DNA of 64,000 nucleotides from Pectobacterium polonicum (GTDB lineage Bacteria; Pseudomonadota; Gammaproteobacteria; Enterobacterales; Enterobacteriaceae). The stretch lies in NCBI RefSeq assembly GCF_005497185.1, contig NZ_RJTN01000011.1, forward strand, positions 62,001 through 126,000. Reading direction: 5' to 3'. Positions 43,122 to 57,505 of the stretch are shown one piece after another. Below the pieces are notes generated by a model. The model did no database searches. It had not been told where the DNA came from and worked only from the letters and a program-made list of their open reading frames with translations. Made by a program: the position numbers and the translations under genes. Position 1 is the first letter of the stretch. Every line of letters begins with the position of its first letter.

Positions 43122-43772
43122 ATGTTAGAGATATTTGATGTAAATCACACCCTGTTGTCAGAAACAAAATCAGAAGAGCTATTTACCCTCAGAAAAGAGA
43201 CGTTTAAAGATCGACTGAATTGGGCCGTGCAATGTACTGATGGAATGGAATTTGATCAGTATGATAATAATAACACGACTTATCTTTTTGGCATGAAAGA
43301 TAACACCGTTATCTGTAGTTTGAGATTTATTGAAACAAAATACCCTAACATGATTACCGGGACGTTTTTTCCTTACTTCAAGGAGATAAATATCCCTGAA
43401 GGTAATTACCTGGAATCTAGTCGGTTCTTTGTAGATAAATCACGAGCGAAAGATATTCTCGGCAATGAATACCCAATTAGTTCTATGCTGTTTCTTTCAA
43501 TGATTAATTATTCAAGGGATAAGGGTTATGATGGAATATATACGATAGTGAGTCACCCTATGCTGACAATATTAAAGCGTTCTGGCTGGGGAATTCGCGT
43601 GGTCGAGCAAGGCTTGTCAGAAAAGGAAGAAAGAGTTTATTTAGTCTTCCTTCCCGTTGATGATGAGAATCAGGAAGCGCTGGCTCGTCGTATTAACCGC
43701 AGTGGGAAATTTATGAGCAATGAATTGAAGCAGTGGCCTCTACGGGTACCTGCCGCTATTGCACAGGCTTGA
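43122..43772 (+). CDS. expI: N-acyl-homoserine lactone synthase
   Basis: 216-residue LuxI-family enzyme nearly identical in character to ExpI/CarI/AhlI of Pectobacterium. From S-adenosylmethionine and acyl-ACP it makes 3-oxo-acyl-homoserine lactone, the quorum signal controlling plant-cell-wall-degrading enzymes. The family residues are visible: R and F in LRKETFKDRLNW, the conserved Asp of MEFDQYD, and the LRFIETKYPNM and ESSRFFVD segments. A GGAGG site precedes the ATG. It converges with expR and overlaps it by 17 bp. The gene is A+T rich compared with argG. Confidence 0.97.
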   Translation: MLEIFDVNHTLLSETKSEELFTLRKETFKDRLNWAVQCTDGMEFDQYDNNNTTYLFGMKDNTVICSLRFIETKYPNMITGTFFPYFKEINIPEGNYLESSRFFVDKSRAKDILGNEYPISSMLFLSMINYSRDKGYDGIYTIVSHPMLTILKRSGWGIRVVEQGLSEKEERVYLVFLPVDDENQEALARRINRSGKFMSNELKQWPLRVPAAIAQA

Positions 43773-44484
43773 TGAGCTGTAACTCAACGCCGAGCCTGAT
43801 GGCATGCTTGGCATTCAGGACGCCAAGTTTTTTCACAACGTTGCCGATATGAAATTTTACCGTGCTGGTTTTGATGCCGAGAATAATCGCAACTTCCAGA
43901 TAGGTTTTACCCATACTGGCCCAGTAAAGAATTTCATTTTCTCGTTGAGAGAATATGTCTTTATTGTTTGATTGTTTTTTATCTTCAATCATCTCTCTGC
44001 AAAGGGAGATGATTTTTTCATATGCCTCAATTAATAGCATCTGAAAGGTGTCTTTTTTCTCTTCAATGAATGTTTCAACATCATCTGGATACGAACTGTC
44101 CACGATAATCGATAGCATGGCCAGATTGTCGCCATTATCGTGAAGTACAAAAGTATATCCATTGATAATATTATATTTTTTAGAGAGATCAAATATCTTG
44201 GCCAGCTGAAATCTAGTGTTAATAACCAGACTTTTCTCCCACGAGAAAGGCGATATTTTATTAAATGATGCAAGAACAACAGGATCAATGTGCTGGTATT
44301 TATTTTCTTTATAGATGTTTACCCATTCATCGGGATAACTGGAAATGATGATCATTTGAGAAGGGTTCTTCTTATTGAGAACCATAAATGAGAATTTTAC
44401 GCCGTTGTAGTGATCCAGGTTTTTATTGAAGTGTTTTTTGATTACCCTGCTTATTATTTCACTATCGGTGAATAATGGCGACAT
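43756..44484 (-). CDS. expR: LuxR-type quorum-sensing regulator
   Basis: 242 residues. The N-terminal acyl-HSL-binding domain carries the family residues W54, Y58 and D67 with the standard spacing. The C-terminal LuxR helix-turn-helix occupies about residues 178-240 (LSQRENEILYWASMGKTYLEVA). In Pectobacterium, ExpR-class proteins bind DNA without signal and are released by the lactone, which relieves rsmA activation. It converges with expI, so the two mRNAs overlap at their 3' ends. Strongly A+T rich. Start ATG at 44484 after GAGG. Confidence 0.95.
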   Translation of the reverse strand: MSPLFTDSEIISRVIKKHFNKNLDHYNGVKFSFMVLNKKNPSQMIIISSYPDEWVNIYKENKYQHIDPVVLASFNKISPFSWEKSLVINTRFQLAKIFDLSKKYNIINGYTFVLHDNGDNLAMLSIIVDSSYPDDVETFIEEKKDTFQMLLIEAYEKIISLCREMIEDKKQSNNKDIFSQRENEILYWASMGKTYLEVAIILGIKTSTVKFHIGNVVKKLGVLNAKHAIRLGVELQLIKPVQ

Positions 44485-48079: not shown

Positions 48080-48346
48080 ATACCCGTCATACTTCGAGCT
48101 GCTTGTGCGTTGGCCGCCCTTACTCACCCCAGTCACTTACTTGTGTAAGCTCCTGGGGATGAAATGAGAGACATCCTGTCTCTCACCGAAGGCCAGCCGT
48201 TGGCTAGTCAAATTCGTTCCCGACGAATTTGTCGCGCGGTTGCCGCGCTACAAGGCCATAAATGGGCCTCGCCCTAGCGGGCCAACGCTTTGCGTTGTTC
48301 AAAACGATAACGTTTTGTCACGCAACTCGAATTATTTAGGGTATAT
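48080..48346. repeat. Long palindromic repeat made of a chain of hairpins
   Basis: The ends (48080-48102 and 48323-48344) are imperfect inverted repeats, as in the short copy at 24567-24625. Inside are consecutive perfect stems: 48127-48158 (CCCCAG/CTGGGG around CTTAC/GTAAG), 48165-48185 (9 bp), 48194-48204, 48210-48230 (8 bp), 48234-48248 (6 bp), 48253-48269, 48271-48282, 48284-48296 and 48301-48316. Another, 48348-48360, follows. It fills most of the space between glpM and the lipid operon. No coding potential seen. Confidence 0.85.
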
Positions 48347-48392
48347 GGCACCGTAGGTGCAGCTAAAACGATAATGAATCTGAAAAGGATTG

Positions 48393-49409
48393 ATGTTGAA
48401 GACGCAAAGTCATGCATTTACTCAGGGATTGGTTCCACTCAAGATTATTTCTACCGGCAGCGCGCTTCCTGCGCAGCGGGTGACGTCAGCCGAATTAGAT
48501 GTGCGGCTCAATAAGCCCGCCGGTTATGTCGAAAGCCGTTCAGGCATTATCTATCGTCACCATGCCGATAATCATGCTAGCCAGGCTGAACTCGGTGTGG
48601 CGGCGTTAAATGACGCGCTGGCGCGGGGAGTTATTCCGCCCGCGTCCATCGATCTGCTGCTGTTTGCTTCTGCTATTCCGATTCAGGCGCTGCCTTATAG
48701 CGCCAGCCATTTATTAAAGGCGTCGTCTCTGCCAAAAGGGACGGCCTGTTTTGATATTAACAGCAGTTGCGTCAGCTTTATTTCCGCGCTTCAGGTCGCA
48801 GCTGGTTTGCTGAATACCGGCGCTTATCGGCGCATTGCCATTGTCTCTACCGAACTGGCCTCACGCGGCATTGACTGGGATGATGAAGAGTCGTCGCTGA
48901 TTTTTGGCGATGGTGCCGCGTGCGCCATTGTTGAACGCGGCGATGGGCGCAGCGGTATTGCGGCGTGCTTGCTGGAAACTTATCCGAAGGGCAACGAACT
49001 GTGCCAAATCCGCGCAGGCGGCACCTTGCGCAACCCGCGTGCGGGGATGGAACTGCATGATTTTCTGTTCCATATGCAGGGGAAACGGCTCTTCAGACAG
49101 GCTTCTGCCTTGATTGAGGGCTATCTGCAACGTCTGCTGGATGCCAGCGGGTACTCGCTGGATCAGATGGCGGCGGTGGTTCCGCATCAGGCCAGCCACC
49201 TGTCGCTGGAACATATGCGCAAGCGGCTGGCGATTCCGACGGAAAAGCTGATTGATATTTACCGCTATCACGGCAATCAGGTGGCGGCCTCGATTCCGAC
49301 GGCGCTGCATCATGCTATCGTGACGCAACGCCTGCCTGAAGGTGAACCCGCGATGCTGGTCGGTACGGCCGCTGGGCTGACGCTGGGCGGAATGGTGCTG
49401 ATCCCATGA
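48393..49409 (+). CDS. KAS III-like condensing enzyme (FabH/OleA type)
   Basis: 338-residue thiolase-fold ketosynthase III. The catalytic triad is complete: C126 in DINSSCVSF, H265 in VPHQASH and N295 in YHGNQVAAS. It is not the housekeeping fabH, as its context is a secondary operon. OleA-type enzymes of this fold join two acyl chains head to head; others prime fatty-acid or polyketide synthesis. ATG at 48393 follows AAAAGG; TTG at 48390 is less likely. It is the first of eight coupled genes and overlaps the next by 4 bp. The preceding 267-bp hairpin repeat lies between it and any upstream promoter. Confidence 0.88.
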   Translation: MLKTQSHAFTQGLVPLKIISTGSALPAQRVTSAELDVRLNKPAGYVESRSGIIYRHHADNHASQAELGVAALNDALARGVIPPASIDLLLFASAIPIQALPYSASHLLKASSLPKGTACFDINSSCVSFISALQVAAGLLNTGAYRRIAIVSTELASRGIDWDDEESSLIFGDGAACAIVERGDGRSGIAACLLETYPKGNELCQIRAGGTLRNPRAGMELHDFLFHMQGKRLFRQASALIEGYLQRLLDASGYSLDQMAAVVPHQASHLSLEHMRKRLAIPTEKLIDIYRYHGNQVAASIPTALHHAIVTQRLPEGEPAMLVGTAAGLTLGGMVLIP

Positions 49410-50434
49410 GAGTCTTCGTCACGGGCGCCACCAGCGGGTTGGGGCGTAACGCGGTGGAATGGCTGCTCCAGGCCGGACATCAGGTGCTGGCCTGCGGGCG
49501 CGATCGCACGGTTGGGCAACAGCTTGAAGCACTCGGCGCGCAGTTCGCCCGCATCGATTTGGTCGAAACCTCGGTAGAGCAATTTCGAACGCTGATGGCG
49601 GGCTGTGATGTGATCTGGCACTGTGCCGCAAAATCATCACCGTGGGGTCAATATGATGATTTTTATCAGAATAATACCGAGGTAACGGCGCGACTGGCTG
49701 AAGCCGCCGGTCAGTTGGGTATCCCGCGTTTTGTGCACATCTCCACGCCTGCGATTTACTTTGATTATCAGCACCACCTGAACATTGATGAAAGCTACCG
49801 TGCGGCGCGTTTTGCCAATCATTATGCGCAGACCAAATTTCTGGCGGAAGAACGGCTTCAGGCGATGACGTCACGCTACCCGCAAACCACCTATGTCATC
49901 CTGCGCCCGCGTGGCCTGTTTGGCCCACATGACCGCGTGATTTTGCCACGTGTTCTGGAGCAGATCGCGGTGGGGAGAGGCGTGCTGCGTCTCCCGCGCG
50001 GTGGTGAAGCGCTGCTGGATCTGACGTTTGTTGGCAACGTGGTAGAGGCGATGGCACTTGCCAGCCAGCGCACGGGGTTAGTTTCAGGTTCGGCGTACAA
50101 CATTACCAACCATGAGCCCGCGCGCCTTGCAGACATGCTTCAGCAACTGCTGGTCGGTCAGTTGGGCATGAATTATCGCGTTAGGGCGGTGCCGTATCCG
50201 TTGCTGCACGCGGTGGCCGGTGGCATGGAACTGTTCTCGTGGTTTAGCCGAAAAGAGCCGCTGCTGACACGCTATAGCGCGGGAGCGGTGAATTTTGATA
50301 TGACGCTTAGCGCGGAGAAAGCGCAGCAAGAGCTGGGCTATCAGCCGCGTTTTTCCCTCCAGCAGGGTATCGAGTTAACCGGTAGCTGGTTCAAAACACA
50401 CCTTGCGCAGCGGAGCACTGACGGACATGGCTAA
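49406..50434 (+). CDS. NAD(P)-dependent reductase, 3-beta-HSD/OleD-like extended SDR
   Basis: 342 residues. The N-terminal Rossmann motif VTGATSGLGRNA (residues 4-15) and the catalytic Y140-x-x-x-K144 (YAQTK) mark an extended short-chain dehydrogenase. PRFVHISTPAIYFD and ILRPRGLFGPHD are typical of the 3-beta-hydroxysteroid dehydrogenase/OleD branch. Next to a KAS III enzyme it most plausibly reduces the beta-keto product of condensation to a beta-hydroxy compound. Its ATG overlaps the previous stop by 4 bp and its end overlaps the next gene by 8 bp. Confidence 0.88.
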   Translation: MRVFVTGATSGLGRNAVEWLLQAGHQVLACGRDRTVGQQLEALGAQFARIDLVETSVEQFRTLMAGCDVIWHCAAKSSPWGQYDDFYQNNTEVTARLAEAAGQLGIPRFVHISTPAIYFDYQHHLNIDESYRAARFANHYAQTKFLAEERLQAMTSRYPQTTYVILRPRGLFGPHDRVILPRVLEQIAVGRGVLRLPRGGEALLDLTFVGNVVEAMALASQRTGLVSGSAYNITNHEPARLADMLQQLLVGQLGMNYRVRAVPYPLLHAVAGGMELFSWFSRKEPLLTRYSAGAVNFDMTLSAEKAQQELGYQPRFSLQQGIELTGSWFKTHLAQRSTDGHG

Positions 50435-51233
50435 TATTTCGACGTTTGAAGTAGGATACTGCCTGCATCCGGGTTGTATGGCGCTGCGTGGTGCGGGATG
50501 GAAAGTGTGCCGTTTTCCGGCGCGGGTCTGGATGCTGGAAAGTCAGGGTAAGCGCTGGCTGTGGGATACCGGCTATGCTCAGCATTTCACCGACGCCACG
50601 CGTTCCGGCCTGTTCCAACTGTACCGCAGAATGACGCCGGTGCATTTCGAAACGAAAGACGCGCTGATTCACCAGCTACACGCGCAGGGTATTCAGCCTG
50701 CCGATATCGACGGCCTGATCATCTCCCATTTTCACGGCGACCATATCGCGGGGCTGCGGGATTTCCCCTCCGTGCCGTTTATCTGTTCGGCGCTGGGCTG
50801 GCAGCAGACGCGGAACCTGCGCGGTTTCTCCGCCTTGAAACGGGCGTTTGTCCCCGCGCTGATCCCTGAACATTTCGAGCAGGCGCTCCAGTTTGTTGAA
50901 AATTTTCCGCTTACCGACCTGCCTGCCGAGCTGGCACCGTTTACGCAAGGCTATGCGCTGCCCGGTAGTGATAAAGAGATCGTGCTGGTGCCGTTGCCCG
51001 GCCACGCAGCCGGACACCTTGGCGCGTTTGTGCTGACCGAAAACGGCTGGGTGCTGCTGGCAAGTGATGCTGCCTGGTCGCCGCACAGCTACCGTGAAGG
51101 TCGTGGGCCGTCGCGGTTGGCGAATCTGGTGATGGACGATCCAAAAGCCTATTACCACACGCTGGATCAGCTGCACCAGTTGCACCTGAACGGACAGGTC
51201 GAGATTCGTCTGTGCCACGAGGGCGACTTATGA
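50427..51233 (+). CDS. Metallo-beta-lactamase-fold hydrolase
   Basis: 268 residues. The metal-binding motif is H101-F-H103-G-D105-H106, with further ligands in LPGHAAGH and LASDAAWSP. The layout resembles quorum-quenching lactonases and thioesterase-like MBL enzymes. In this operon it may release the product from a thioester or open a lactone; neither is proven. ATG at 50427 follows GGAG. It overlaps the genes on both sides (8 and 4 bp). Confidence 0.87.
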   Translation: MANISTFEVGYCLHPGCMALRGAGWKVCRFPARVWMLESQGKRWLWDTGYAQHFTDATRSGLFQLYRRMTPVHFETKDALIHQLHAQGIQPADIDGLIISHFHGDHIAGLRDFPSVPFICSALGWQQTRNLRGFSALKRAFVPALIPEHFEQALQFVENFPLTDLPAELAPFTQGYALPGSDKEIVLVPLPGHAAGHLGAFVLTENGWVLLASDAAWSPHSYREGRGPSRLANLVMDDPKAYYHTLDQLHQLHLNGQVEIRLCHEGDL

Positions 51234-52516
51234 TTCCGCTGATGACGATCTGGCACTATTTCCGCGCCAGACGCCTGAGTTTTACTACCCGTCAGGCGCT
51301 TGAACGCCATCAGCAGAATCAGCTCGCCCGCTTCGCGCGGCGGGTGCTGGCGCGTAGTCCCTATTTTCGTCCTTACTGCCAGCTTCCTATAACGTCGTGG
51401 CCGATGATGGATAAAGCCGTAATGATGGCCGAATTCGATCGGATGAACACCGCCGGACTTAAGAAGGATGACCTGCTCGCCTGCGCGCGCCGCAGTGAGG
51501 ACGATCGCGACTTCACGCCGAGTGTAAATGGGTTCAGCGTCGGGCTGTCGTCCGGCACCTCTGGTCAGCGTGGGCTGTTTGTCGTCAGCCCACGTGAACA
51601 GCAGGTGTGGGCGGGAGGCATGCTGGCAAAAATGCTGCCGGACGGTTTACGCGCCGGTGAACGGGTGGCGCTGTTTCTGCGGGCGGATAACAACCTGTAT
51701 CACAGCGTCGATAACCGCTGGCTCAGCCTGTCGTTTTACGATCTCTTTGCGCCATTTTCCGGCCATTTTTCGCGGCTGGAAGCGTGGTCACCGTCGATTA
51801 TCGTTGCTCCTGCACAGGTGCTGCGCGAGTTGGCGTTGGCGGTACAGCGTGGTGAACTGCGCCTGTCGGCCAAAAAGGTGATTTCCGTGGCCGAGGTGTT
51901 GGAGCCGCAGGATAAGCAGCTGTTGCAGCAGGTCTTCGGGCAAGTAGGGGAAGTGTATCAGGCAACGGAAGGCTTTCTGGCATCGACCTGTGAACATGGC
52001 ACGCTGCATCTTAACGAAGAATTTATTCACATTGAGCCGCAGTGGCTGGATGACGAACGCTTTACGCCCATCATTACCGATTTCACCCGCAGCACGCAGC
52101 CGATTGTGCGCTATCGGCTGGACGATATATTGGTGAAGCAAAAAACACCCTGTGCGTGTGGTCGGGTGACGATGGCGATAGCCCGCATTGAAGGGCGCAG
52201 CGATGACAGCCTGAGATTGCCGGATAATCGCGGTGAGCCTCAGACCGTGTTTGCGGATCTCTGTAACCGGGTGATTGCTAATGTGCTGCCGCTACATGCT
52301 GATTATCGGCTGGTGCAGCAGGGCGACGCGACGCTGCATTTATCCGCCGCGTGTAGCCTGCCAGAGCTGGAAGCCTGCCGTGACAGTCTGGTGCAGCAGT
52401 TTGCGTTGCAGGGCATTGATGCGTCGCGGCTACAGTGGCGGTTAAGCGCTGGTGAGATCGCGCCAGAATTTACGCAAAAGCGCAGACGGATTACCCGCCT
52501 GAAGGAGGAAATATGA
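51230..52516 (+). CDS. Adenylate-forming enzyme, F390-synthetase/PaaK-like
   Basis: 428 residues of the ANL-type fold related to coenzyme F390 synthetase and phenylacetate-CoA ligase. The phosphate-binding loop is GLSSGTSGQRG near residues 106-116. YQATEGFLASTCEHG gives the adenine-site motif, RYRLDDI the nucleotide-binding Asp, and PCACGR a cysteine pair typical of the PaaK branch. Enterobacteria lack F420, so the true substrate is probably a carboxylic or fatty acid activated as acyl-AMP. In an Ole-like scheme it would stand in for OleC. It overlaps its neighbours by 4 bp at each end. Confidence 0.85.
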   Translation: MIPLMTIWHYFRARRLSFTTRQALERHQQNQLARFARRVLARSPYFRPYCQLPITSWPMMDKAVMMAEFDRMNTAGLKKDDLLACARRSEDDRDFTPSVNGFSVGLSSGTSGQRGLFVVSPREQQVWAGGMLAKMLPDGLRAGERVALFLRADNNLYHSVDNRWLSLSFYDLFAPFSGHFSRLEAWSPSIIVAPAQVLRELALAVQRGELRLSAKKVISVAEVLEPQDKQLLQQVFGQVGEVYQATEGFLASTCEHGTLHLNEEFIHIEPQWLDDERFTPIITDFTRSTQPIVRYRLDDILVKQKTPCACGRVTMAIARIEGRSDDSLRLPDNRGEPQTVFADLCNRVIANVLPLHADYRLVQQGDATLHLSAACSLPELEACRDSLVQQFALQGIDASRLQWRLSAGEIAPEFTQKRRRITRLKEEI

Positions 52517-53169
52517 TGCGATTTCCTCAAAGCACGCTGCTATTGCGGCTGAAAGCGCTGCTCTTCGGCTGGGGATCGGTCGGGGTGGTGTATCAACTGA
52601 GTGCACAGTTTCAAGGGCAGGGAACGGTGTTACCTCCCTCGATTATCGACGAATGGATTCCCTTTAGCCCCTTGGCTATCTGGCTGTATCTCTCCTTTTT
52701 TATCATCATTCCTCTGTCTTACTTATCCTGCCCGATTGCGCGCTTGGCTGGATTACGTCGGGCAACGCAGCTTACGGCGTTGATTGCGGGCGCGGTGTAC
52801 CTGATTTTTCCAACCACGATGGTGTATCCGCAGGCTATCGGAGGCGACCTCTCCGCTCGTCTGCTACAGCTTTTGCAGAGTATCGATTCGCCGCAAAATT
52901 GCCTGCCGTCGCTGCATATGGCGCTAACGGCACTGGCGGTGTGGGCGATGAGCGATAGCCAGCAGAAAGTAAAAACGGGTTTGTATCTTCTCTGGGGTGC
53001 CGCAATTGCCTTCTCCATCCTGCAACTGCGCCGGCACCTGTTCATCGATCTGGTGACGGGCGCGATGCTGGCGGGTATAACCGGATGGATTTTTCTGCGT
53101 AGCCGAGAGACGGTGGAGGCCATTTCCCCAGCGGCTCCGTTGCCTAACGACAAGCGCCATCAGGAATGA
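52513..53169 (+). CDS. PAP2-family membrane phosphatase
   Basis: 218 residues with about five or six membrane segments. The PAP2 active-site motifs are recognisable as CLPSLHMA (Ser-Leu-His) and RRHLFIDLVTGA (Arg-His...Asp). The first motif (KxxxxxxRP) is weak or absent, so the family call rests on motifs 2 and 3. Family enzymes remove phosphate from lipid phosphates such as phosphatidate or undecaprenyl pyrophosphate. In this operon it may dephosphorylate a lipid precursor or move it between leaflets. It overlaps the adenylating-enzyme gene by 4 bp behind AAGGAGG. Confidence 0.82.
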   Translation: MMRFPQSTLLLRLKALLFGWGSVGVVYQLSAQFQGQGTVLPPSIIDEWIPFSPLAIWLYLSFFIIIPLSYLSCPIARLAGLRRATQLTALIAGAVYLIFPTTMVYPQAIGGDLSARLLQLLQSIDSPQNCLPSLHMALTALAVWAMSDSQQKVKTGLYLLWGAAIAFSILQLRRHLFIDLVTGAMLAGITGWIFLRSRETVEAISPAAPLPNDKRHQE

Positions 53170-53173
53170 CATC

Positions 53174-54298
53174 ATGATCGATTTGGCACTACCCATTGTC
53201 TTCATGCTGGTTGTAGTGATTGGTGAAGCGCTGGTTTTACAGTGGATGCAGCGTGAAACGGTGAACTGGCATGACGTGGTTTTCAACCTGAATTCAGGGC
53301 ATATCATGCTGTGGCTTTTTCGCAGCGTGGAAATTTTTTGCTATGGCTATGTCGCGGCGCATTTCAGTTTTGGCTGGGTGGAAACCTGGCCGCCAGTGCT
53401 GATGTGGCTGTTCGCGATACTTGCTTGGGATTTCGGTTTCTATTGGCTACATCGCCTGCACCATACCTTCGGCGTGCTGTGGGCGGTGCATGTGGTGCAT
53501 CATCAAGGCGAGCATTTTAATCTGTCGCTGGGCGTGCGTAACTCCTGGTATTCCTCGCTGACTTCAATTCCGTTCTTCCTGATTCTGGCGCTGCTCGGCG
53601 TTCCGCTGTACGTGTTCGTTACCGTGTCCATCCTGCATTACAGCGTTCAACTGTTTAACCATAACGCCATGACGCCCAAATTGGGCTGGCTGGAAAAGGT
53701 GCTGGTGACGCCAGCACACCATCGCGTACACCACGTGAATGACCGTGCGTATGCCGATAAGAATTTCGGCGGCACTTTTATTTTTTGGGACAAACTGTTT
53801 GGTAGTTTTTGCCCACAGCTGCCCGATACGCCTTTCCGCTATGGCGCGGGTCGGGAAATACCCTCGAAAAACCCGTTTTGGGCCAGTAACCTGCCGTTTA
53901 TGTCTTACCTGAAACTGTCGGTGCGCCGTACGCGTCGCGCGACGTTTCACTGTGCGCCGATGGCGTTGATCGCTGGTGCAATGCTGCTGTTTGCGCTGGT
54001 GGTGGGCTACGTCTACCTGTATGGCTACGGCTATGATTCCGCCGATCTGTCGCAGGCGGCGCTCTTCCTATTGCTGGTGGCAGGGGCGGTTGCGCTGGGC
54101 GGCATTTCCGAAGGAAGACGCTGGGGTATTTACGTTTGGCTGCTGGTGGGGCTGCTATTCCCTGCCGTGTTTCTTGTCTATCTGGGCTGGGAAGCGCTCT
54201 ACTGGAAGATGGCGATGCTGATGCTGGCGCTGCACGGGCTGGCGATGGCGGTCGGCTGGGGCCGGCGTCCCCTGACTGAGGAGCATGAAAATGTCTAG
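53174..54298 (+). CDS. Sterol desaturase/fatty-acid hydroxylase family membrane enzyme
   Basis: 374 residues. The eight-histidine di-iron pattern is present: HRLHH near residue 93, HVVHHQGEHFN near residue 105, and HHRVHH near residue 176. Membrane segments flank it, and a C-terminal extension (about 255-365) adds four more hydrophobic stretches. The family hydroxylates or desaturates lipids and carotenoids using oxygen. Bacteria rarely have sterols, so a fatty or alkyl chain, or an alkylglycerol, is the likelier substrate. It lies 4 bp after the PAP2 gene and overlaps the first desaturase gene by 8 bp. Confidence 0.88.
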   Translation: MIDLALPIVFMLVVVIGEALVLQWMQRETVNWHDVVFNLNSGHIMLWLFRSVEIFCYGYVAAHFSFGWVETWPPVLMWLFAILAWDFGFYWLHRLHHTFGVLWAVHVVHHQGEHFNLSLGVRNSWYSSLTSIPFFLILALLGVPLYVFVTVSILHYSVQLFNHNAMTPKLGWLEKVLVTPAHHRVHHVNDRAYADKNFGGTFIFWDKLFGSFCPQLPDTPFRYGAGREIPSKNPFWASNLPFMSYLKLSVRRTRRATFHCAPMALIAGAMLLFALVVGYVYLYGYGYDSADLSQAALFLLLVAGAVALGGISEGRRWGIYVWLLVGLLFPAVFLVYLGWEALYWKMAMLMLALHGLAMAVGWGRRPLTEEHENV

Positions 54299-55418
54299 TG
54301 TGCTTCCCGCCAAACTGTATCCTGCGAAGGGCGAACAGGCTTTCCATCGGGCATTACAGCGGGAAACGTCGGCCTATCTCCGCGCTAATCACGATCATCG
54401 CTTTGCCGATAGCGGACAATTTATTAAGGCCGGATTACTCTTTTTATGCTGCATCGCCTGTTATGCCCTTTGTTTAGTGCAGCAGGCGGCATGGGCGTTC
54501 TTCCTGAGCTATTTTTCTTTCATTATGCTGTCGATGTTATTGAATATCATCGTGAATCATGACGCCTCCCATAATACCTTTTTCCGCAACCAGACACTGA
54601 ACCGCGTGGTTGGGCGCATCGTCACGTTGCCATTAGGCATCGATCCCGATTACTGGCGTTTGCGTCATGTGGACTTCCACCATCTTTATCCGAATGTGGA
54701 ACATTACGATCTGGATACGGAAGAGAATGGGGTTTTCCGCCAAACGCCTTTTCAGCGCCACCGTTCCTACATGCGTTATCAGCATCTTTACTGGCCGCTG
54801 GTGGCCGCGTTCTCGCTCCCTTATATCGCCTGGATTTTTGATTGGGCCGATCGCTTGGGTAAAACCCCCGTCAAGGCCCGCTCGGCGCAATCAGGCTGTG
54901 ATGGATGGTTGATTTTTATCGGCAGTAAAATCGGTCATCTCCTGCTGTTATTGGTGATTCCCATCATGGTGGGGGCGGCGCACGGCGTTAGTCCGGGCAT
55001 CGTGCTGCTAAGCTATTTGCTGGGGCAGATGTTGGCCTCGTTGCTGGTGGTGTTTTTACTGCTGGGTACGCACTGGGCTGAAGCTGAGTTTTATGCCGTT
55101 GCCGATACAGAGGCGATGCCTCAAGGCTGGTATCAGCACAACTTTGCGACCGCCTGTGACTGGCTGCCGACGCCGCGCTGGCTTGAGCACTGGACGGGAG
55201 GGTTAAACCTGCACCTGACACACCATCTTTTCCCCGGATGGCATCACCGGCATTATCCCGCGCTCGCCGGTATCTTACGGCGCGTGGCCGCCGAGCATGG
55301 TATGAACTATCGCTGCATTACCTATCGTGAGCTACTGGCTAGCCAGCGTCGGTTTTTAAAATCGATGGGTGAGGGGAACGATCAACGCACCGTGAAACAT
55401 GGCTCAGAGGAAGGATGA
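54291..55418 (+). CDS. Membrane fatty-acid desaturase, paralogue 1
   Basis: 375 residues. The three histidine boxes of di-iron acyl desaturases are HDASH, RHVDFHH and LTHHLFPGWHHRHYP. Two hydrophobic hairpins lie between them. It would introduce a double bond (or, as in polyyne clusters, a triple bond) in an acyl chain. ATG at 54291 is preferred over 54285 because the GAGGAG site then has a 7-base spacer. It is clearly paralogous to the next gene; for example both have HYDLD-EENGV after the second box. It overlaps both neighbours. Confidence 0.88.
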   Translation: MSSVLPAKLYPAKGEQAFHRALQRETSAYLRANHDHRFADSGQFIKAGLLFLCCIACYALCLVQQAAWAFFLSYFSFIMLSMLLNIIVNHDASHNTFFRNQTLNRVVGRIVTLPLGIDPDYWRLRHVDFHHLYPNVEHYDLDTEENGVFRQTPFQRHRSYMRYQHLYWPLVAAFSLPYIAWIFDWADRLGKTPVKARSAQSGCDGWLIFIGSKIGHLLLLLVIPIMVGAAHGVSPGIVLLSYLLGQMLASLLVVFLLLGTHWAEAEFYAVADTEAMPQGWYQHNFATACDWLPTPRWLEHWTGGLNLHLTHHLFPGWHHRHYPALAGILRRVAAEHGMNYRCITYRELLASQRRFLKSMGEGNDQRTVKHGSEEG

Positions 55419-56515
55419 TGCTCGCACCGCTGAAGCCGCTGCGCTATGAACAAGGTCGCGATCTGGCATTGCATCGGGCGCTGATGAAAGCCGCGAATGA
55501 CTATTTGGCAGCAACGGGCGACCACCGTTTTGCCAATGCGGGGTTTATCGGCAAGATGCTGTTTCTGGTGGTGCTGTGCCTGACGTTTTATGGTTTCAGC
55601 CTCTGGCAGACGACGCTGTGGGGGTTTGCTGGCTGCTACTTTGGCTTTATTTTTACCGCCATGTTTCTGGCGGTGAACGTGGTGCATGACGCCTCGCATA
55701 ACGTCTTTTTCCGGCGGCCGTGGGCGAATCGCCTGCTCAATATTGTGGTGAGTATTCCGCTCGGTATGGATTCCGACTGCTGGCGCGTGCGGCATGTGAT
55801 TTTTCATCATGCGCACGTCAACGTGCAGCACTACGATCTGGATATCGAAGAGAACGGCGTCTTGCGGCAATCACCCTACCACCGGTTTCGCTTTTTTATG
55901 CGCGCCCAGCGCTACTACTGGCCGATGGTGGCGTCGCTGACCTTCCCCTGCATCATCTGGTTTTTTGACTGGATCGATCGCGCGGGGAAAACGCAGGTGA
56001 CGCGCAATATGACGCTTCAAGGCGGTAAGGGCTGGGGTATTTTTCTGTTATCAAAAGCGCTGCATACTCTGCTGGCATTGGCGATCCCCTATTGGTTGTT
56101 GTCGCCGACACCCGTCAGCGCCGGTGCGCTGTTGCTGGTTTATCTGCTGAGCCAGATGCTGTCATCGCTGATTTTTGTCGTCCTGATTCTGGGGTCGCAT
56201 TGGGCAAAAGGGACGTTCTATCAGGCACCGGAAGATGGCTTATTCAGGCATGGTCGCTATCAGCACGTCTTTTCCACCACGGTGGACTGGACGACTCGGC
56301 CCGTCTGGCTTGGTTACTGGTTGGGGCAGCTCAATATGCACCTGACTCACCATATTTTCCCCAACTGGAATCATCGGCACTATCCCGCGCTGTCGAAAAT
56401 TATTGCGGAGGTTGCCCCGCGTTACGGCATTGATTATCAATGCATTACATTGAAAGCGATTTTAGTTGAACAGCAGCGCTTTCTTAAAAAGATGGGAAAT
56501 GGCAGCAAGAAATAG
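55415..56515 (+). CDS. Membrane fatty-acid desaturase, paralogue 2
   Basis: 366 residues with the same architecture as the preceding gene: HDASH, RHVIFHHAHVN and LTHHIFPNWNHRHYP boxes, and the shared HYDLDIEENGV segment. The two probably arose by gene duplication and then specialised for different positions or chain states. It starts at an ATGATG doublet overlapping the previous stop (TGA at 55416-55418). It is the last gene of the operon; the next gene has its own ribosome site 60 bp on. Confidence 0.88.
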   Translation: MMLAPLKPLRYEQGRDLALHRALMKAANDYLAATGDHRFANAGFIGKMLFLVVLCLTFYGFSLWQTTLWGFAGCYFGFIFTAMFLAVNVVHDASHNVFFRRPWANRLLNIVVSIPLGMDSDCWRVRHVIFHHAHVNVQHYDLDIEENGVLRQSPYHRFRFFMRAQRYYWPMVASLTFPCIIWFFDWIDRAGKTQVTRNMTLQGGKGWGIFLLSKALHTLLALAIPYWLLSPTPVSAGALLLVYLLSQMLSSLIFVVLILGSHWAKGTFYQAPEDGLFRHGRYQHVFSTTVDWTTRPVWLGYWLGQLNMHLTHHIFPNWNHRHYPALSKIIAEVAPRYGIDYQCITLKAILVEQQRFLKKMGNGSKK

Positions 56516-56575: not shown

Positions 56576-57505
56576 ATGCGTTATTTATCTCTGGCCGTTT
56601 CATCCCTGCTGTTTTTCTTCACCTCGTCCGTCTGGGCGATGGATTGCAGCAAGGCCAGCACAGACACCGAGAAAATGATTTGTGCCAGCAGCCGTTTGCA
56701 GCAGCTCGATGCGGTATTAAACAAGGCCTATCAGGCTTATGTGAAAAAGGCAGACAAAGCGCAAGCACGTCAGGAGCAGCGCACGTGGCTGGCAGAGCGT
56801 GACCGCTGTAAGGATGATGTTTGTCTGGGGAATGAGATGGTTTCCCGTATTCAGGCGCTTTCCGGCAGTGAAAATATTTCCCTGATTACTCAGGCATCAG
56901 GCCAGTGGGACTTCGTTCTCAGCGTGGCGACGTGCAATCTCGACTCTTCTTACTCAACCTGCGAAGGCCCCGGTACGCTGGATATCTTTAAGAAAGGGCG
57001 TGGTGACCTGTTCCAGCGTATCAACATGGAAAATATGTTCATCGAGCTGAACAATAAGGGTGAAGTCACCGCGAATCTGGTCGAGGTCTACGGTGAGAAC
57101 AACAGCGGACTAGTGATTGATGACGCTAACTTCGATCACCATGCGGATATCATGCTGCGTAATGGCAACAGCGGTGCTTACGGCGGGCCGTCTTATGACG
57201 TCTACCTGTTTGATGTGGAAAAGCAGCAGTTTACCCAGAATGCGCCGCTGACCGAGTTAGCCAGCTCCAACCTCGGCCTGTTCGAGATTGATGAGAAAAG
57301 TAAGACCATCACGACGTTTACCAAAAGCGGCTGCTGCTGGCACCAATGGTCTACCTATCAGATAGCCAATAATAAGCCTGTCCTGATTGTCGAAACCACG
57401 GAAGCCTACTCCGAAGAGAAGAAGGCGATGGTCGCTACCACCCGCGAGCTGGTGGGCGGCAAGTGGAAGGTGAAGGAAGAGATAGTAAAAGTCGACGAAC
57501 AGTAA
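56576..57505 (+). CDS. Periplasmic LprI-like/XAC2610-like protein
   Basis: 309 residues with a signal peptide (about 1-21, ending VWA|MDC). Residues 22-95 match the lysozyme-inhibitor LprI N-terminal domain (CSKASTDTEKMICASSRLQQLDAVLNKAY, RTWLAERDRC). The C-terminal part (about 105-300) resembles the XAC2610 family, with DDANFDHHADIML and GAYGGPSYDVYLFD. Both groups include inhibitors of lysozyme-like enzymes, so it may protect the cell wall from such attack. AAGGAG lies before the ATG. It is possibly a separate unit from the lipid operon. Confidence 0.75.
   Translation: MRYLSLAVSSLLFFFTSSVWAMDCSKASTDTEKMICASSRLQQLDAVLNKAYQAYVKKADKAQARQEQRTWLAERDRCKDDVCLGNEMVSRIQALSGSENISLITQASGQWDFVLSVATCNLDSSYSTCEGPGTLDIFKKGRGDLFQRINMENMFIELNNKGEVTANLVEVYGENNSGLVIDDANFDHHADIMLRNGNSGAYGGPSYDVYLFDVEKQQFTQNAPLTELASSNLGLFEIDEKSKTITTFTKSGCCWHQWSTYQIANNKPVLIVETTEAYSEEKKAMVATTRELVGGKWKVKEEIVKVDEQ

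What the first reader, a model, noticed from the sequence alone, without database searches (positions are those of the whole stretch)
48393..56515. Eight-gene, fully coupled lipid-modification operon without a recognised product
Seen: eight same-strand genes whose ends overlap by 4, 8, 4 and 4 bp, then a 4-bp gap, then overlaps of 8 and 4 bp. Established: KAS III/OleA condense acyl chains, OleD reduces beta-keto acids, ANL enzymes activate acids, PAP2 removes lipid phosphate, and the di-iron families hydroxylate or desaturate chains. Inference: together they make a desaturated, hydroxylated long-chain compound, perhaps an olefin, beta-lactone, polyyne or modified membrane lipid. No acyl carrier protein, thioesterase of the usual type or exporter is in the operon, so it would borrow these or attach the product to the membrane. 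I know of no described pathway with this set.
Basis: partly seen in the sequence, partly recalled or inferred. Interest (0 to 1): 0.88.

Follow-up and report, generated by a model that had tools for sequence, protein, structure and literature searches.

The report
Modular lipid-making operon, unknown product
Eight tightly coupled genes in a soft-rot-type bacterium turn out to be a four-enzyme lipid-building core with an exchangeable set of finishing enzymes, found also in some E. coli and bee-gut bacteria, and no description of what it makes was found.

Summary
In detail: eight same-strand ORFs with exactly the stated overlaps, all under purifying selection. Comparison changes the unit. A four-gene core, KAS III - SDR - MBL hydrolase - adenylating enzyme (TIGR02304), is present in 90 of 93 neighbourhoods from Proteobacteria, Bacillota and Fusobacteriota. 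The tail is exchangeable: PAP2 + di-iron hydroxylase + desaturase(s) as here, a second reductase + glycosyltransferases, ATP-grasp/GNAT proteins, or none of these. Of 5,426 complete E. coli genomes 672 match a seven-gene version. The KAS is not OleA: the residue at OleA's catalytic-Glu site is Leu/Ile in 89 of 89. Its nearest solved relatives are MxnB and CorB, which join two acyl chains; the SDR's nearest models are OleD. Best reading: the core joins two acyl chains and reduces the beta-keto product, the adenylating enzyme re-activates the acid, and tail enzymes decorate it. Shown are architecture, families and residue conservation; the chemistry is inferred. Eight open-access literature searches aimed at the gene set showed no description. 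Olefin, beta-lactone or polyyne membership is not supported; an unrecognised lipid pathway is.

The parts
48393..49409 (+). KAS III-type ketosynthase (core), nearest solved relatives MxnB/CorB; Cys126-His265-Asn295
49406..50434 (+). extended SDR, OleD-like reductase (core); Ser113-Tyr140-Lys144
50427..51233 (+). metallo-beta-lactamase-fold hydrolase (core), nearest to lactonases; the Tyr of their D-A-x-Y site is Trp217
51230..52516 (+). PaaK-like adenylate-forming enzyme, TIGR02304 'F390 synthetase-related' (core)
   Evidence: (579.8 bits, cut-off 251.9)
52513..53169 (+). PAP2-superfamily membrane protein (tail A); His135, His175, Asp179 invariant
53174..54298 (+). sterol desaturase/fatty acid hydroxylase-family di-iron membrane enzyme (tail A)
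54291..55418 (+). fatty acid desaturase-family di-iron enzyme 1 (tail A)
55415..56515 (+). fatty acid desaturase-family di-iron enzyme 2 (tail A), 49% identical to the first

Best explanation
A modular lipid-biosynthesis pathway. Shown: a four-gene core (KAS, SDR, MBL hydrolase, adenylating enzyme) conserved as a unit across phyla with intact catalytic residues, plus an exchangeable tail; here the tail is PAP2 + di-iron hydroxylase + two desaturases. Inferred: the KAS joins two acyl chains head to head, as its nearest solved relatives MxnB and CorB do; the OleD-like SDR reduces the resulting 2-alkyl-3-keto compound to the beta-hydroxy compound; the MBL hydrolase frees it from its thioester or opens a lactone; the adenylating enzyme activates the free acid for transfer to a head group or carrier. 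The tail then finishes the lipid in the membrane: hydroxylation and desaturation of the chains and a phosphate-group step in this genome, glycosylation or amide-type chemistry in others. So it would work like the Ole pathway but be built from other parts.
For: Core in 90 of 93 neighbourhoods. Of 394 genomes drawn from the order (own included), 22 have the adenylating enzyme over its cut-off; 22 of 22 have SDR and MBL beside it and 21 of 22 have the KAS, on the same contig within about 3 kb. Catalytic residues invariant: KAS C/H/N 89 of 89, SDR S/Y/K 93 of 93, seven MBL metal-site residues 132 of 132 (roles recalled). KAS profile: MxnB 243 bits, CorB 227, best FabH 208, PqsD 131, OleA chains 83. 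Motifs shared with MxnB/CorB and not seen in the four FabH chains compared: Q-A-[LVI]-P (80 of 89 KAS) and GG[ST] (a looser GG[STMG] pattern in 86 of 89); tree path shorter to MxnB/CorB than to FabH. FabH acyl-pocket positions are smaller here (F87 to Leu 84/Ile 5, L142 to Ala 83, L189 to Cys 86, of 89). MxnB joins two beta-ketoacyl chains (PMC5724707 passages), with Val at the Glu site (PMC4578411). SDR best models are OleD (171 and 168 bits), which act on a two-chain beta-keto acid. Ten genomes with no hydroxylase or desaturase gene beside the core hold no homologue of desaturase 1 (0 of 10) and one weak hydroxylase homologue (1 of 10, 27% identity), while 5 of 5 controls have both: the core is kept without them. 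GT21 glycosyltransferase in 12 of 93 loci, Fusobacterium among them.
Against: No substrate or product is known. The KAS's lead of MxnB over FabH is moderate (243 vs 208 bits), and the tree has no outside root and carries a long-branch warning. PMC4578411 places MxnB and CorB within the FabH clade. MxnB uses carrier-bound beta-ketoacyl chains, and no carrier protein was found in the operon. The MBL's nearest relatives are lactonases, not thioesterases, and it lacks their Tyr. PAP2's kin are only weakly placed (LpxE E 0.028, AUR1 E 0.086), and weak PAP2 homologues do occur elsewhere in 4 of 11 genomes without it beside the core, so the core may not be wholly free of that step. The order of steps is untested. 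Structure predictions of MBL and KAS never returned, so two-tunnel geometry is untested.
Confidence: 0.45

Rival explanations
1. Single-chain route, like PqsA-PqsD-PqsE: the adenylating enzyme makes an acyl thioester, the KAS extends it once with malonyl by decarboxylation, the MBL hydrolase releases the beta-keto acid as a thioesterase, and the SDR reduces it to a beta-hydroxy acid that tail enzymes decorate.
For: KAS keeps the C-H-N triad of decarboxylating KAS III and has no OleA-type Glu; FabH chains score 208 bits at best, not far below MxnB; best NCBIfam models are KAS III/FabH types. The PqsA/D/E analogy is recalled.
Against: PqsD is much further off than MxnB/CorB (131 bits); no chain named PqsE is in the MBL's list at E 1e-3; FabH Arg249 is Leu in 80 of 89 and Arg151 is Glu, Pro, Gln or Ala in 76 of 89; the SDR is nearest to OleD.
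Confidence: 0.3
2. A signal or lactone system: the core makes a lactone or pyrone signal and the lactonase-like hydrolase tunes it; an ExpI/ExpR-like pair lies about 4 kb away in this genome.
For: MBL nearest to AHL and pyridoxo-lactonases; MxnB makes an alpha-pyrone; AHL synthase-like and LuxR-like genes at 43122-44484.
Against: The lactonase Tyr is Trp in 98% of 132 MBL; in the neighbourhood clustering each of these two genes groups over four loci only, those shown being Pectobacterium (whole genomes were not searched for them); membrane desaturases, hydroxylases and glycosyltransferases fit a lipid better.
Confidence: 0.12
3. A true Ole pathway (olefin or beta-lactone).
For: SDR OleD-like; the four roles can be mapped on OleA, D, C, B.
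Against: OleA Glu absent in 89 of 89; the hydrolase is MBL fold and the ANL TIGR02304; SDR under the OleD cut-off.
Confidence: 0.05

Closest known systems
OleABCD olefin / OleACD beta-lactone pathways
   Same: A KAS III-type enzyme, an OleD-like SDR, an adenylate-forming enzyme and a hydrolase in one operon; possibly the same two-chain logic
   Different: KAS lacks the OleA Glu-Pro; hydrolase is MBL fold, not alpha/beta (OleB fold recalled); ANL is PaaK/F390-like; extra membrane-enzyme tail
MxnB / CorB chain-joining ketosynthases (myxopyronin, corallopyronin)
   Same: Closest solved relatives of the KAS; C-H-N triad, hydrophobic residue at the Glu site, Q-A-[LVI]-P and GG[ST] motifs
   Different: No PKS assembly line or carrier protein here; SDR, MBL and ANL partners are not part of those pathways (recalled)
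PQS pathway PqsA-PqsD-PqsE (recalled)
   Same: ANL + KAS III + MBL-fold hydrolase
   Different: PqsD and PqsE are not the nearest relatives; this has an SDR and a lipid tail
TIGR02304 'F390 synthetase-related protein' (NCBIfam)
   Same: Full member by score (579.8 vs cut-off 251.9 bits)
   Different: The family name gives no function; it is not a coenzyme F390 synthetase (TIGR03335 20.3 vs 458.7 bits)

Membership tests
OleABCD pathway | OleA catalytic Glu followed by Pro in the dimer-crossing loop | tested here: not met
   Leu in 84, Ile in 5 of 89 KAS; Pro kept. Site placed by FabH Phe87 and by Val94 of MxnB/CorB; motif from PMC7064751 passages
OleABCD pathway | OleD equivalog score | tested here: not met
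   171.4 and 167.6 bits against cut-off 580
OleABCD pathway | OleB alpha/beta-hydrolase and OleC PF00501 ligase (folds recalled) | tested here: not met
   hydrolase is Lactamase_B; ANL has no Pfam hit and matches TIGR02304
MxnB/CorB chain-joining ketosynthases | Sequence kinship above other KAS III | tested here: inconclusive
   best hits 243 and 227 bits vs 208 for FabH; tree without outside root, long-branch warning
MxnB/CorB chain-joining ketosynthases | C-H-N triad with a hydrophobic residue in place of Glu (Val94 in MxnB/CorB) | tested here: met
   C126/H265/N295 and Leu/Ile at site 100 in 89 of 89; Val94 from PMC4578411
MxnB/CorB chain-joining ketosynthases | Second acyl tunnel and joining of two chains in vitro | not testable with these tools
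TIGR02304 F390 synthetase-related | Score over the curated cut-off | tested here: met
   579.8 vs 251.9 bits
AHL lactonase (MBL fold) | HxHxDH plus His, Asp, His metal site | tested here: met
   seven residues invariant in 132 of 132
AHL lactonase (MBL fold) | Tyr in D-A-x-Y and equivalog score | tested here: not met
   D-A-A-W against Tyr in the three lactonases aligned; at most 47.2 bits vs cut-offs 360-475
Polyyne clusters | Carrier protein and fatty acyl ligase with the desaturases (recalled) | tested here: not met
   no PP-binding or PF00501 domain in the eight proteins at E 0.001

The most novel reading that the evidence does not exclude
A previously unrecognised, widely spread family of bacterial lipids: two acyl chains joined by an MxnB/CorB-type ketosynthase and reduced by an OleD-like enzyme give an alpha-branched beta-hydroxy (mycolic-acid-like) acid in Gram-negative bacteria, made by a four-gene core that is an Ole-like pathway assembled from non-orthologous parts, and then turned by exchangeable tails into hydroxylated/desaturated, glycosylated or amide-linked lipids.
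Probability: 0.3. Interest if true: 0.87.

Novelty: new variant of a known kind. Interest (0 to 1): 0.72.

Why it matters
If right, a class of membrane lipids has been overlooked in well-studied bacteria: 672 of 5,426 complete E. coli genomes match a version, 23 of 25 genomes of the window's genus have its marker enzyme, and named loci lie in Serratia, Providencia, Xenorhabdus, Pseudomonas, Snodgrassella and Gilliamella. The modular design (one core, several finishing sets) makes the product open to prediction by comparison, and the test is simple: delete the core and look for the missing lipid.

Tried and rejected
OleA membership: rejected on the missing Glu and scores. Polyyne: no carrier or PF00501 domain. 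Coenzyme F390 synthetase: 20.3 vs 458.7 bits. Plasmid origin: the operon's DNA gave no match among plasmid records at near identity, but a protein search with the ANL found 65 plasmid records, 34 of them covering at least 80%, so relatives do travel on large plasmids. Phages: one weak partial match. RNA families and tRNAs in the window: none at the thresholds used. Foreign DNA: the operon has 56.2% GC against 51.8% for the rest of the window, about 1.9 s.d. above the mean of overlapping 8-kb windows, whose maximum of 56.7% may itself overlap the operon; not decisive. Promoter and terminator scans were no better than shuffles. PDB sequence searches for desaturase 1 and the hydroxylase gave nothing at E 0.1. 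The unknown 194-aa tail-B protein had no Pfam or NCBIfam match at E 0.001 nor PHROGs at 0.01. Structure predictions of MBL and KAS were polled until without result, so no fold search was made.

Literature: eight searches aimed at the gene set and two at the nearest known pathways, the cap. Four of the eight gave no paper; of the others I saw 20 of 417, 15 of 18, 10 of 21 and 12 of 83 titles. Subscription papers and preprints were not searchable.

The 93 loci are those over 9 kb with an ANL hit; shorter ones were left out (L030, L089, L098 and the 4-kb loci of the genome search), presence is counted anywhere in the locus (in L137 the core genes are spread out), and loci cut at a contig end (such as L072, L081) can look tail-less. 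The 3 of 93 without the full core are L021, L064, L082. The KAS set is 89 of 92 after a length and stop filter.
Full report
1. Observation. The window is contig 3, 62001-126000, of an unnamed 4.8-Mb genome; its best named matches are Pectobacterium (95% identity in the adenylating enzyme; core 97% identical to P. versatile). All eight genes are under purifying selection: dN/dS 0.029-0.202 in 31 comparisons with four Pectobacterium loci, PAP2 being the fastest.

2. What the proteins are. KAS: KAS III fold, best NCBIfam PRK07204 (321.9 bits, under its cut-off of 402). SDR: best models are OleD (171.4 and 167.6 bits, far under 580), then HpnA (128.5). MBL: lactonase-like, far under the cut-offs. 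ANL: TIGR02304 at 579.8 bits (cut-off 251.9). PAP2: PAP2_3. Then FA_hydroxylase and two FA_desaturase proteins, 49% identical to each other.

3. Spread and linkage. TIGR02304 over its cut-off occurs in 23 of 25 genomes of the genus, 22 of 394 drawn from the order and 7 of 398 drawn from the phylum, five of these of the own family: patchy outside the genus. In the order draw 22 of 22 have SDR and MBL beside the ANL and 21 of 22 have the KAS (the miss, G327, is 51% complete). Two further genomes have the KAS without an over-cut-off ANL: G041 (E 6e-61, the weakest) and G269, where both genes are degraded. In 93 longer neighbourhoods 90 hold all four core genes. In E. coli a seven-gene form (one desaturase) lies behind narI and before tRNA-Tyr and/or purU; 672 of 5,426 complete genomes match it, 671 over at least 80% of its length.

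4. Modularity. Of the 93 loci, 56 have PAP2, hydroxylase and desaturase (tail A); 12 have the GT21 glycosyltransferase of tail B (second OleD-like SDR, HpnI-like GT21, an unknown 194-aa protein, an MGT-like transferase); 4 of these have both; 9 have an ATP-grasp and/or GNAT protein (tail C); 9 have the core with none of the tail genes looked for, among them 5 of 8 Xenorhabdus loci (one of the five is cut at its contig end). On a tree of the four core proteins (92 rows) the tail state needs at least 19 changes over seven states (shuffled mean 36.4), so tails follow lineages but are exchanged repeatedly (quick tree, long rows flagged). A GT21 also stands beside the Fusobacterium core, the same pairing in another phylum. 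Ten genomes with no hydroxylase or desaturase beside the core hold no homologue of desaturase 1 (0 of 10) and one weak hydroxylase homologue (1 of 10); five of five control genomes have both. For PAP2 the picture is less clean: 4 of 11 such genomes hold a weak homologue elsewhere. So the core is kept without the di-iron enzymes, which I read as decoration.

5. Mechanism. The core active sites are intact. The KAS is the informative part. Its profile finds MxnB (243 bits) and CorB (227) before FabH (208 at best), PqsD (131) and the OleA chains (83) (the labels PqsD and OleA for those entries are recalled). It shares Q-A-[LVI]-P (80 of 89) and GG[ST]-type motifs with MxnB/CorB that the four FabH chains compared lack. 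OleA and PpyS need a Glu at the site where this family has Leu or Ile and MxnB/CorB have Val. MxnB joins two long beta-ketoacyl chains. Against this, PMC4578411 places MxnB and CorB within the FabH clade and says that their mechanism differs from that of PpyS, so kinship to them is also compatible with a FabH-like enzyme. Positions that line FabH's acyl pocket are smaller here (alignment at 28% identity, so tentative). The SDR's nearest family, OleD, reduces the joined product in the Ole pathway. Two neighbours thus point to two-chain chemistry. From there I infer: join, reduce, release (MBL), re-activate (ANL), decorate (tail). I give this 0.45 and the single-chain rival 0.3.

6. Known or not. 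It works like Ole pathways in outline but fails their tested defining features. No paper describing the set was seen in eight searches aimed at it (open-access library, partial listings). The nearest described enzymes are MxnB/CorB for the KAS and OleD for the SDR. I call the whole a new variant of a known kind, because the enzyme families and a parallel logic are known, while the combination, the exchangeable tails and the product are not.

7. What I saw of papers: PMC7064751, PMC5724707 and PMC12304814 by passages; PMC4578411 parts 1 and 2 of 3; the others only as search listings.

Noticed in passing
window 48080-48360: The stretch just upstream of the operon is a repeat: it has 74 match places in this genome, many partial, so the operon's promoter region carries a multi-copy element.
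   Followed up: partly
window 43122-43772 (+) and 43756-44484 (-): An acyl-homoserine-lactone synthase-like gene and a LuxR/SdiA-like regulator, convergent and overlapping, about 4 kb before the operon (both under the curated cut-offs).
   Followed up: partly
L001, L014, L028, L029, L032, L036, L038, L040, L042, L046, L047, L050, L055: In 13 loci (Escherichia, Serratia, Citrobacter, Leclercia) the operon sits behind the nar nitrate reductase genes, a recurrent place though the di-iron tail enzymes should need oxygen.
   Followed up: no
L045:12433-13014: A 194-aa protein between the two glycosyltransferases of tail B, clustering with a Fusobacterium protein (L020), matches nothing in Pfam, NCBIfam or PHROGs.
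   Followed up: partly
L044, L080, L081, L084, L087: Snodgrassella and Gilliamella (bee-gut symbionts, recalled) both carry the core; on the core tree two Gilliamella, one Snodgrassella and a Neisseriaceae MAG form one clade while another Snodgrassella (L044) lies elsewhere, which suggests transfer between them.
   Followed up: no
G269 (loci L125, L158): An unnamed same-order genome holds a degraded copy with stops in both KAS and ANL.
   Followed up: no
L100:10302-13307 and similar in L076, L091, L092, L099: In some loci the core is near a large protein with AMP-binding and carrier domains (domains read in L100 only), perhaps a further tail type.
   Followed up: partly
window 56576-57505: The gene after the operon encodes a protein with an XAC2610-family domain and, by eye, a signal-peptide-like start.
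   Followed up: no
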